NCBI RefSeq assembly: GCF_010500215.1
Contig: NZ_JAAGOY010000010.1
Location: 46,408 to 110,407 of the forward strand
Direction of reading: 5' to 3'
Source: Aliiroseovarius sp. PrR006
Lineage (GTDB): Bacteria > Pseudomonadota > Alphaproteobacteria > Rhodobacterales > Rhodobacteraceae
DNA length: 64,000 nucleotides
The translations under genes were made by a program, and so were the position numbers. How positions within the stretch are numbered: the first letter of the stretch is position 1; each line of letters opens with the position of its first letter. Below are positions 22,796 through 48,649 of this stretch, piece by piece. The notes beneath the pieces are model-generated. The model was not told the DNA's origin, did no database searches, and saw only the letters and a list, made by a program, of their open reading frames with translations.

Positions 22796-22808
22796 GGGTT
22801 GCGTGTGG

Positions 22809-22981
22809 GCATGGCAGGTCTCCTGGCTTCGCGGGTCGAAGCGCGCCGCCGCCTTCCCGACCCTGAGAGCCAGTGGCGCTGGCGGGCGCTCTCCGCTTAC
22901 AGTCGCGGGGGCGGCTGCACCATCAGACCCCGGATTGGGTCGTCCCCGGTGCATTCCCTTTTGTCCCATTGGGAACCATGC
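22809..22981 (-). promoter_or_regulatory. Cobalamin riboswitch upstream of cobW
   Basis: On the minus strand the conserved blocks appear in order: GGTTCCC with its partner GGGAA, the TGCACC arm, GCCCCCGCGACTGTAAGCGG, CCACTGG, GGGAAGGCGGC, and the B12 box GAAGCCAGGAGACCTGCC. The closing stem GCATGG/CCATGC (22981-22976 with 22814-22809) marks the ends. This is the classical AdoCbl-type aptamer. It lies 46 bases before the cobW start and should repress cobW and the coupled acetyltransferase when adenosylcobalamin is bound. Confidence 0.95.
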
Positions 22982-23197
22982 AGAACGTCTTTGCCGTGCA
23001 AGGGGGCAAAGGGTCAAGATCGAAACCGACCTAGGACGGGGGAATGGCGGCACGGCAAATGCGCCCAGAAGGCGCCAAATGCGATATCTTGTGGATAACT
23101 AGCCCATTTCGACCACATATCGGTCACCGCCGTTGACTCCTGCAATTTCCCTTCGAACAATCATTGGACAGTAAGAATCAATAATGAGGCAGACCGC

Positions 23198-47337: not shown

Positions 47338-47958
47338 ATGACCCGACTTCTTCCTGGCGTGATCGCCATGGCTGCCATTGTGGTGGCCTCAAACATTCTG
47401 GTGCAATTCCTGTTCGGCAACTGGCTGACCTGGGGCGCCTTCACCTATCCGCTGGCATTCCTTGTCACCGACGTGATGAACCGCGTTTATGGCGTGTCCG
47501 CCGCACGCAAAGTCGTCTTTGCCGGCTTCGTCACCGGCGTGATCTGCAGCTTCATCGGCACCCAGATCATGGGCGAGTTCGGTCCGCTTGTGACCCTGCG
47601 CATCGCAATGGGATCCGGCCTAGCCTTCCTGACCGCACAGCTTTTGGACGTCGCGATCTTTGATCGTCTGCGCGAAGGTCGCTGGTGGCGCGCACCGGTC
47701 GTTTCGACCCTGATCGGCAGCTCGGTGGACACCGCAATCTTCTTCACCATCGCCTTCTCGGGCACGCTGACCTTCCTTGAACCGGCCAACGACGTCAGCT
47801 GGGCGGGCGAGGTTCTGCCGCTTCTGGGCGCAGGCCCGATGGCCCCGCTGTGGGTGTCTTTGGCCGTTGCTGACTGGATGGTGAAACTGGCGCTTGCGCT
47901 GCTGGCACTGGTGCCGTTCCGCGTTCTGGTCACAAAACTTTCACCAAATCCTGCGTGA
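47338..47958 (+). CDS. Queuosine-precursor transporter (VUT family)
   Basis: A 206-residue inner-membrane protein with about six helices, of the YhhQ/VUT family (PF02592) that imports queuosine precursors such as preQ0, preQ1 or queuine. FTYPLAFLVTDVMNRVYG and the later LLDVAIFDRLREGRWW with GSSVDTAIFFTIAFSG are the family motifs. ATG 47338 is the natural start; an earlier in-frame ATG at 47248 would be read through the structured leader. The end overlaps a hairpin. Confidence 0.9.
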   Translation: MTRLLPGVIAMAAIVVASNILVQFLFGNWLTWGAFTYPLAFLVTDVMNRVYGVSAARKVVFAGFVTGVICSFIGTQIMGEFGPLVTLRIAMGSGLAFLTAQLLDVAIFDRLREGRWWRAPVVSTLIGSSVDTAIFFTIAFSGTLTFLEPANDVSWAGEVLPLLGAGPMAPLWVSLAVADWMVKLALALLALVPFRVLVTKLSPNPA

Positions 47959-47967
47959 AAAGTTTTG
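47933..47967 (+). terminator. Terminator-like hairpin at the end of the queuosine-precursor transporter gene
   Basis: CAAAACTTTCAC (47933-47944) pairs with GTGAAAAGTTTTG (47955-47967) with one bulged A, and the stop codon lies inside the second arm. The T-run is within the stem, so termination would be moderate. Confidence 0.5.
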
Positions 47968-48026
47968 ACAAACGCAAAATATGTGGCACGCTCCTAGATA
48001 TAGAAACAGCGAGAAAGGAGGTGTCC

Positions 48027-48068
48027 ATGTCAAGAGATGCAACGGAGCGAGGTGCTGGGACAATCTAG
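48027..48068 (+). CDS. 13-codon leader peptide ORF
   Basis: ATG to TAG encodes MSRDATERGAGTI. Its ribosome site is as strong as possible: 12 bases complementary to the canonical 16S tail, GGAGG five bases before the ATG. The peptide has no run of a single rare amino acid, so classical amino-acid attenuation is not obvious. Whether the peptide or only ribosome occupancy matters is unknown. Confidence 0.45.
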   Translation: MSRDATERGAGTI

Positions 48069-48152
48069 GTCGCGGTGGTTCGAGGCAGCCCTCGAACTGA
48101 AACGCGGGCCGAGTTGACCCAAGTCTAACCGGCCCCACCTCCAATATTCTCG

Positions 48153-48186
48153 AAAGGGTCGTTCCGATGGAACGGCCCTTTTTCGC
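48153..48186 (+). terminator. Strong intrinsic terminator upstream of arfB
   Basis: AAAGGG-T-CGTTCC (48153-48165) pairs with GGAACG-G-CCCTTT (48169-48181) through a 3-base GAT loop, 13 pairs including one G-U, with a five-base T-run. It ends any transcript coming through the structured RNA 44 bases before arfB. Confidence 0.9.
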
Positions 48187-48229: not shown

Positions 48230-48649
48230 ATGATCCGCGTGAATGACGATATCACCCTGCAAGACTGGGAGCTCAGCGAAAGCTTTTCACGCTCGTCCGG
48301 CCCCGGCGGGCAAAATGTGAACAAGGTCTCGACGGCCGTTGAGTTGCGGTTCGAAGCCGCACGCTCTCCCCATCTGTCGCAAGCCGTGAAGGCGCGGCTG
48401 AAGCGGATCTCCGGGCGGAAATGGGCGCACGATGGCGCGATCACCATCCGGGTCGAGGATACGCGCAGCCAAGCCCGCAACCGAGAGATCGCCGCCGAAC
48501 GTCTGGCCGAAATGGTCCGCAAAGCGCTGGTCGCGCCCAAGCGGCGCATCCCAACCAAGCCCACCAAAGGGTCTCAGCGCCGACGCATGGATGCCAAGAC
48601 CAAACGCGGACAAGTGAAGGCTTTGCGTGGGAGGGTCACGGATGATTGA
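48230..48649 (+). CDS. arfB: ArfB, alternative ribosome-rescue peptidyl-tRNA hydrolase
   Basis: A 139-residue release-factor-like protein (YaeJ/ICT1 type) that frees peptides from ribosomes stalled without a stop codon. FSRSSGPGGQNVNKVSTAVELRF holds the GGQ catalytic motif, and the C-terminal tail is rich in lysine and arginine (RRRMDAKTKRGQVKALRGR), as needed to enter the mRNA channel. AGGGTG precedes the ATG. Upstream lies a terminator-ended RNA with ribosome-mimicking sequences. The other rescue factor, smpB, is also in this window. Confidence 0.94.
   Translation: MIRVNDDITLQDWELSESFSRSSGPGGQNVNKVSTAVELRFEAARSPHLSQAVKARLKRISGRKWAHDGAITIRVEDTRSQARNREIAAERLAEMVRKALVAPKRRIPTKPTKGSQRRRMDAKTKRGQVKALRGRVTDD

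What the first reader, a model, noticed from the sequence alone, without database searches (positions are those of the whole stretch)
47995..48186. Terminator-ended RNA carrying both a full-length SD and an anti-SD mimic, in front of the ribosome-rescue gene arfB
AGAAAGGAGGTG (48012-48023) perfectly complements 12 bases of the canonical 16S 3' tail and drives a 13-codon ORF. CACCTCC (48136-48142) further on mimics that tail and can pair perfectly with GGAGGTG of the same RNA. Two more clean hairpins and a 13-bp terminator complete the element, and arfB starts 44 bases after it. Translation of the mini-ORF would free the anti-SD mimic; idle or scarce ribosomes would let the RNA close on itself. 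This would be an apt sensor of ribosome status for a rescue factor, or a small RNA that blocks ribosome sites elsewhere.
Basis: partly seen in the sequence, partly recalled or inferred. Interest (0 to 1): 0.85.

Follow-up and report, generated by a model that had tools for sequence, protein, structure and literature searches.

The report
Self-locking mini-message matching ribosome's tail
This is a predicted short RNA gene, found in 254 of 295 sampled genomes of this bacterial family, that carries a tiny conserved reading frame behind a ribosome-binding site complementary base for base to the tail of the ribosomal RNA; the RNA is predicted to fold back and shut that site, so it likely works as a self-locking mini-message rather than only as a switch for the neighbouring rescue gene.

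Summary
In detail: extended SD, 13-codon ORF, CACCTCC, hairpins and a 13-bp terminator are all there. The arfB reading is only partly right. Homologues occur in 254 of 295 family genomes, nearly always once, and have their own promoter-like sequence (89 of 90). In 90 genera the SD:CACCTCC pairing is never broken, 85 mini-ORFs have exactly 18 codons (all three stop codons occur), and 89 of 90 are predicted to close the SD. A queuosine-precursor transporter gene lies just upstream in 84 of 90; arfB follows within 400 nt in only 67. Relatives elsewhere in the class mostly have other neighbours and match Rfam RF01867 (CC2171), a Caulobacter sRNA. So this is a divergent relative of CC2171 that Rfam's cut-off misses (0 of 61), and the group looks like translated mini-mRNAs. 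Likely mechanism (inferred): 30S subunits, through an 11-18-nt match to the 16S tail, compete with an internal lock; ribosome loading is predicted to move CACCTCC onto a second site inside the ORF (63 of 90). What the switch controls is unknown.

The parts
47965..47992 (+). predicted promoter: -35 TTGACA (47965-47970), 16-nt spacer, -10 CACGCT (47987-47992); start expected near 47999-48001
   Evidence: TTGnnn-(15-18)-nAnnnT, 14-27 nt before the SD block, in 89 of 90 family homologues (72 of them with spacer 16 and 19-21 nt), 2 of 90 after one letter shuffle each
48000..48183 (+). predicted transcript, about 184 nt (ends inferred)
   Evidence: promoter spacing, terminator; the RF01867 model in a relative starts at CAACAAC just before the SD block
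48012..48023 (+). extended Shine-Dalgarno AGAAAGGAGGTG, complement of the 16S tail CACCTCCTTTCT
   Evidence: same-genus 16S tail; longest run matching the 16S-tail complement is 11-18 nt across 90 homologues
48027..48068 (+). mini-ORF, 13 codons plus TAG (MSRDATERGAGTI); 18 codons in 85 of 90 family homologues
48017..48023 (+). P1 5' strand GGAGGTG (SD core)
   Evidence: pairs with 48136-48142; 100% of 630 cells paired in 90 sequences
48136..48142 (+). P1 3' strand, anti-SD mimic CACCTCC
   Evidence: only G-U-preserving changes seen across 90 sequences
48049..48054 (+). ORF-internal GAGGTG, predicted alternative partner of CACCTC (48136-48141) when a ribosome sits on the SD
   Evidence: 63 of 90; all six pairs possible in 54 of 90, five of them in 66 of 90
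48055..48058 (+). P2 5' strand CTGG, pairs with CCGG 48129-48132 (family consensus helix)
   Evidence: helix 4: 97.5% of cells paired, 2 of 4 pairs with two-sided changes; the window's own lowest-energy fold uses a local hairpin instead
48129..48132 (+). P2 3' strand CCGG
48077..48098 (+). P4 hairpin with CAGC loop (48086-48089)
   Evidence: helix 7: 8 of 9 pairs with two-sided changes
48149..48154 (+). TCTCGA, candidate partner of codons 2-3 (TCAAGA, 48030-48035); would cross P1 as a pseudoknot
   Evidence: 84% of cells paired, but no covariation beyond shuffles; inferred
48153..48183 (+). intrinsic terminator, 13-bp stem, loop GAT, T run
   Evidence: terminator-like hairpin plus T run in 88 of 90 homologues
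47341..47958 (+). queuosine precursor transporter (YhhQ/Vut_1), conserved upstream neighbour
   Evidence: PF02592 and TIGR00697; just upstream, same strand, in 84 of 90
48230..48649 (+). arfB, downstream neighbour
   Evidence: NF006718, 176 bits against a cut-off of 100; within 400 nt downstream in 67 of 90

Best explanation
The element is a predicted single-copy RNA gene related to CC2171 (RF01867), with its own promoter-like sequence and terminator, a conserved mini-ORF and a ribosome-binding site complementary to the 16S rRNA tail, and it is predicted to be a mini-message that locks its own ribosome-binding site by pairing it with a downstream CACCTCC. How it likely works (inferred): transcription starts about 25 nt before the ORF; ribosomes load while the RNA is being made, or later invade the 7-bp lock because the 16S tail offers a longer helix (11-18 nt across the family). 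While a ribosome sits on the start site, CACCTCC is predicted to move to a GAGGUG inside the ORF; when the ribosome has reached the stop codon the lock is predicted to re-form behind it. Each RNA would thus be translated in proportion to free 30S subunits and then shut. The output, which could be the short peptide, the exposed CACCUCC acting on other messages, or the RNA's own stability, is not known; I favour a trans-acting regulatory RNA whose shape depends on ribosome loading.
For: Widespread, nearly always one copy: 254 of 295 family genomes. Translation: 85 of 90 ORFs are exactly 18 codons; over all 90 the stops are TAG 39, TGA 36, TAA 15; codon 2 is Ser in 87 of 90 through four synonymous codons. 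Lock: P1 paired in 630 of 630 cells, its changes all G-U-preserving; other helices covary (whole structure: 340 two-sided cells against 93.5 shuffled, 0 of 500). SD closed in 89 of 90 folds; switch to the internal site in 63 of 90 with a ribosome on the start. Promoter-like sequence 89 of 90, terminator 88 of 90. Kinship to CC2171: over Rfam's cut-off in 4 of 20 loci and in one more, L219; 16 of 16 loci match end to end at E 0.02 or better; 52 of 61 family genomes at E <= 0.01. In the class the SD plus start pattern gives 71 of 385 genomes (two of them in this family), reversed control 0, with ORFs of 20-35 codons in 28 of 30 loci read.
Against: No expression or ribosome-profiling data were available for this genome. 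The SD lock is not class-wide: only 6 of 32 non-family copies fold with the SD fully closed (unpaired probability 0.02 or less; transcript ends guessed); CC2171 proper closes codons 3-5 instead. P1 shows no two-sided covariation, since the SD side never changes, and its changes are all transitions, so they are modest evidence. The ribosome-occupancy folds are energy-model predictions with a crude footprint; 27 of 90 do not make the predicted switch. Many codons (AGA 85, GAG 89, ACA 90 of 90) are fixed beyond what coding needs. The RF01867 run also rang in Deinobacterium, one of 14 control genomes and not an alphaproteobacterium, so its weakest E-values may be chance. Schrader 2014 states that the intergenic Caulobacter ncRNA regions are not translated (PMC4117421, passages).
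Confidence: 0.6

Rival explanations
1. arfB attenuator: translation or folding of the mini-ORF RNA sets read-through of the terminator into arfB in this family.
For: arfB follows within 400 nt in 67 of 90 genera, often with little room for a separate promoter; weak leaderless-promoter signal (11 of 67, shuffled mean 4.7, highest 11) and an SD-like 4-mer in 19 of 67. arfB is also near in two other families.
Against: 23 of 90 genera keep the RNA without arfB directly behind; most other families have different neighbours; promoter-like sequence and terminator are kept in 89 and 88 of 90. No call tested for an anti-terminator; none struck me by eye.
Confidence: 0.15
2. Functional microprotein gene: the conserved 18-residue peptide (MSRxxLERGVGT...) is the product, and the fold only limits its dose.
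For: Constant length and N-terminal sequence within the family, synonymous changes in codon 2. A 23-residue Sinorhizobium peptide, SEP1, had the highest translation efficiency of the unannotated ORFs (PMC10117765, passages); the eight Rhizobium-like copies here (family f174) also have 23 codons, but SEP1's stated pI of 4.18 does not obviously fit the sequences I read, so this is a lead only.
Against: The peptide changes completely between families (MSHCH..., MSSD..., MSSE...) while SD and start are kept. No NCBIfam match for eight and no Pfam match for six peptides of 20 residues or more; the usual 18-residue form is too short for these tools. Many codons are fixed at the nucleotide level.
Confidence: 0.2
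3. Purely non-coding sRNA, as Rfam labels CC2171, whose CACCUCC seed blocks ribosome sites of target messages; the ORF is incidental.
For: Rfam type 'Gene; sRNA'; C-rich anti-SD motifs are suggested to act on ribosome-binding sites in other alphaproteobacterial sRNAs (PMC3927594, passages).
Against: 18 codons in 85 of 90 with three different stop codons in use; a GTG, ATG or TTG start at SD distance in all 90; CACCUCC is predicted to be buried when no ribosome is bound.
Confidence: 0.1

Closest known systems
CC2171 sRNA (Rfam RF01867), Caulobacter
   Same: End-to-end model match (E 1.4e-6 for L055; 52 of 61 family genomes at E <= 0.01); same 5' block GAAAGGAGGTGATCCAGTGTC, short ORF in the relatives read, long-range helix to the stretch before a strong terminator.
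   Different: Scores stay below Rfam's cut-off of 75 bits in all 61 family genomes and the window copy is not found. The long-range lock here covers the SD itself, not codons 3-5. Rfam treats it as a non-coding sRNA.
CcsR / RSs0680-type alphaproteobacterial sRNAs with CCUCCUCCC loops
   Same: C-rich anti-SD motif (PMC3927594, passages).
   Different: The window element has no CCUCCUCCC loop; it has its own mini-ORF and pairs the motif with its own SD.
hok-type fold-back-inhibited mRNAs (recalled, no call)
   Same: Message kept silent by pairing of 5' and 3' parts.
   Different: No antisense RNA was looked for; the peptide is shorter and by eye not hydrophobic; no toxin likeness tested.
Spot 42 and rnTrpL, dual-function sRNAs
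   Same: Small RNA carrying a 14-15-codon ORF (named in PMC10117765, passages).
   Different: No sequence kinship tested; here SD complementarity to the whole 16S tail is the hallmark.

Membership tests
RF01867 CC2171 | score over Rfam's gathering cut-off (75 bits) | tested here: not met
   0 of 61 family genomes over the cut-off
RF01867 CC2171 | significant end-to-end similarity, window copy itself | tested here: not met
   no match in the window stretch at E <= 10 and none in the window's genome
RF01867 CC2171 | significant end-to-end similarity, the window copy's homologues | tested here: met
   52 of 61 family genomes at E <= 0.01; 4 of 4 family loci; the window copy joins this set with 118 bits by model R2
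RF01867 CC2171 | 5' block CAAC..GAAAGGAGGTGATCCAGTGTC | tested here: met
   the window's genus lacks one A (GGTG-TCCATG)
RF01867 CC2171 | helix between codons 3-5 (CAUUGUC) and GACAAUG before the terminator | tested here: inconclusive
   replaced here by SD:CACCUCC (100%); a codon 2-3:UCUCGA helix is possible (84% of cells, no covariation)
RF01867 CC2171 | expressed as a discrete small RNA | not testable with these tools
   no RNA-seq of this organism; Landt 2008 is not held
arfB cis-regulatory leader | conserved directly upstream of arfB | tested here: not met
   67 of 90 genera only; near arfB in 2 further families only, among 40 loci compared
Translated mini-mRNA | conserved reading frame with start and stop at fixed places | tested here: met
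   85 of 90 exactly 18 codons, three stop codons in use

The most novel reading that the evidence does not exclude
Alphaproteobacteria carry a class-wide, single-copy mini-message, so far filed as the non-coding sRNA CC2171 or missed altogether, whose ribosome-binding site copies the complement of the whole 16S rRNA tail and whose fold swings between closed and open with ribosome loading: a dedicated sensor of free small subunits, placed next to the ribosome-rescue gene in most of the Rhodobacteraceae genera sampled.
Probability: 0.25. Interest if true: 0.88.

Novelty: new variant of a known kind. Interest (0 to 1): 0.72.

Why it matters
It links an unrecognised, widespread RNA element of Rhodobacteraceae to an unexplained Caulobacter sRNA family and gives comparative evidence that the group is translated. 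A ribosome-binding site that pairs with the 16S tail over its length, kept across families and facing an internal competitor, makes a direct test possible of whether bacteria gauge free 30S subunits with a dedicated RNA. It also points to an annotation gap: no copy in 61 family genomes reaches Rfam's cut-off.

Tried and rejected
Rejected or left: a known Rfam family found directly in the window (only the cobalamin riboswitch at 22796-22995 passed; nothing relevant at E <= 10). The R. sphaeroides UTR-derived sRNAs UdsA-UdsH were read about (PMC8625941: outline with abstract, part 1 of 2 of the results, figure legends and table; PMC9779115: passages); the loci of most are not given in what I read, and no sequence was compared. 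BjsR sRNAs of Bradyrhizobium: passages only, no match shown. NCBIfam with eight and Pfam with six typed mini-peptides gave nothing. Plasmid search with a Rhizobium-like copy: no match. A leaderless arfB promoter is weak. The crossing helix codons 2-3:UCUCGA has no covariation. The alternative pairing with the internal GAGGTG is less conserved than P1 (54 of 90 full).

Limits of the counts: model R1 was built from 18 of 27 aligned sequences (near-duplicates, L023 and L027 left out). R2 came from 34 sequences. The 90-sequence set is the 30 best loci plus 60 that I chose by hand from the listed, better-scoring matches's 254, so it leans to good matches; 30 of them carry flanks of 1.5 kb or less. 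A5 was fitted to R2's structure, which favours that structure. The 80 named loci L061-L140 (80 of 120 stretches) were found with a pattern that fixes SD and start, so they were not used for counts. Of the 15 non-family loci, two printed empty and were not read. Families and class are unnamed in the genome tool: I read f1 as Rhodobacteraceae because contigs of G030, G070 and G083 have the lengths of named records, and the class as Alphaproteobacteria by inference.

Literature searches for earlier descriptions. 'CC2171' and 'RF01867' gave only Rfam 15 (PMC11701678, a table line) and a Mesorhizobium list (PMC5596092, a table line and one other passage) as relevant papers. Schrader 2014 (PMC4117421, passages) says two earlier predicted Caulobacter ncRNAs are translated, without naming them in the passages I saw; one could be CC2171. 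One search's letter strings hit 1,163 papers; the ten listed were irrelevant chance matches. PMC5521070, PMC3927594, PMC2873474 and PMC10117765: passages only. Landt 2008 was not held.

Full report
What is there. The RNA folds much better than its shuffles (z -5.2), with GGAGGTG paired to CACCTCC. The genes beside it are a queuosine precursor transporter, ending at 47958, and arfB, starting at 48230. The 16S tail could not be read in this assembly; in a same-genus genome it is GGCTGGATCACCTCCTTTCT.

Spread. Blastn finds the element in 21 of 21 same-genus genomes, own included, and in 6 of 40 others. A covariance model from 18 sequences finds it in 254 of 295 family genomes, one per genus; in the rows listed only one genome, G229, has two matches. 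At least one genome reported as negative (G033) carries it by blastn. The 80 named contigs listed, of 120 stretches hit by a pattern, are by their names Rhodobacteraceae or kin and unplaced bins, including Cereibacter, Paracoccus, Thioclava and Salipiger.

It is translated-looking. In 90 homologues from different genera, 85 ORFs are exactly 18 codons long (the rest: 13 in three, 17 and 24 in one each); over all 90 the stop is TAG in 39, TGA in 36 and TAA in 15, and starts are GTG 84, ATG 4, TTG 2. Codon 2 is serine in 87 of 90 through four synonymous codons. The consensus peptide is close to MSRxxLERGVGTxxxxxx. The window's genus has the shorter, 13-codon form. Several codons are fixed at the nucleotide level (ACA in 90 of 90), so RNA constraint is present too.

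It is structured. On those 90 sequences the SD:CACCTCC helix is formed in every cell (630 of 630); the CACCTCC side varies, but only by changes that keep G-U pairs, and the SD side never varies, so this helix has no two-sided covariation. Other helices covary: for the whole structure 340 two-sided cells against 93.5 in shuffles, 0 of 500 as high, and sliding the partners destroys the signal. Minimum-energy folds close the SD in 89 of 90. With a ribosome placed on the start site, CACCTCC is predicted to shift to a GAGGUG inside the ORF in 63 of 90; with a ribosome at the stop codon the SD lock is predicted to stand in 86 of 90. That second site can form all six pairs in 54 of 90.

It looks like its own gene. 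A TTGnnn-(15-18)-nAnnnT promoter-like pair lies 14-27 nt before the SD block in 89 of 90 (2 of 90 after one letter shuffle each), and a terminator-like hairpin with a T run follows in 88 of 90. The transporter gene is just upstream on the same strand in 84 of 90 and was not found in 6. arfB starts within 400 nt downstream in 67, lies farther off in 5 and is not in the fetched flank in 18. Among 40 loci from this and other families, compared by their ORFs of 80 residues or more, arfB is the only gene near the RNA in three families (f1, f27, f146); one other downstream gene is shared by two (f71, f95), and the remaining shared ORFs are pairs at scattered positions. An arfB role within the family stays possible, because arfB often begins soon behind the terminator and shows no clearly conserved promoter.

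What it is related to. A model search of the class gave 35 of 337 genomes at E <= 0.01, 30 of them outside the family and mostly weak. A pattern of SD plus start finds 71 of 385 genomes of the class, two of them in this family, with none for the reversed control; 28 of 30 loci read have ORFs of 20-35 codons, one has 56 and one is cut by the contig end. A second pattern finds 47 of 299 genomes of the phylum; only one of the 47 (G748) lies outside the class, and all 20 loci read have ORFs of 20-27 codons. Four of 20 loci scanned pass Rfam's cut-off for RF01867, CC2171, a Caulobacter sRNA, and the alignment shown for one of them (L298) covers the model from end to end. At relaxed threshold 16 of 16 loci tried match it end to end at E 0.02 or better, one of them (L219) over the cut-off and four from this family below it. 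A genome-scale run of Rfam's own model finds 52 of 61 family genomes at E <= 0.01 but none over the cut-off, and not the window's genome; the four places that I compared's list (G094, G022, G069, G030) all overlap the element there. Of 14 control genomes it rings in Caulobacter, as expected, and in Deinobacterium, which is unexpected and suggests chance at the weak end; one of the two is over the cut-off. So the element is a divergent relative of CC2171 that Rfam misses, and by Rfam's own criterion it is not filed as a member.

How it likely works. Shown by sequence: mini-ORF, 16S-tail complement, conserved pairing arms, promoter-like sequence and terminator. Inferred: that it is transcribed as a unit; that the 30S subunit and CACCUCC compete for the same site; that loading of a ribosome moves CACCUCC to the internal site; and that the RNA closes again afterwards. 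The output is unknown. In other families the lock differs: CC2171 pairs codons 3-5 with the stretch before the terminator, and only 6 of 32 non-family copies fold with the SD itself closed. What is shared among the class copies read is the 16S-tail complement, the mini-ORF and, in most, a terminator-like hairpin.

What is known. Searches gave no functional account of CC2171 in the held library. Two leads suggest that translation may already sit in supplementary tables: Schrader 2014 states that two earlier predicted Caulobacter ncRNAs are translated (PMC4117421, passages), and a 23-residue Sinorhizobium peptide, SEP1, has the highest translation efficiency among the new ORFs (PMC10117765, passages). 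I could not check either against sequence.

Noticed in passing
window 22796-22995 (-): Cobalamin riboswitch, 98 bits against a cut-off of 31.5.
   Followed up: no
L023 and L027 (genomes G033, G023): Two family copies have quite different mini-ORFs (23 and 18 codons) but keep the SD, a GGCAG hairpin and CACCTCC.
   Followed up: partly
L203:1500-1700: One class copy carries a 56-codon ORF with a signal-peptide-like start instead of the usual 20-35 codons; it may be an unrelated gene with a strong SD.
   Followed up: no
L225, L193: arfB lies next to the RNA, divergently, in family f27 and about 0.9 kb away in f146.
   Followed up: partly
L302-L309: Rhizobium-like copies carry 23-codon ORFs (MSSDFVF...) whose 3' part could form a CAGT/CAGC-loop hairpin; candidate for the published SEP1.
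   Followed up: partly
genome G748 (other class), contig C50:51745-51761: The only genome outside the class with a hit to AAGGAGGTGATCCNRTG in the phylum sample.
   Followed up: no
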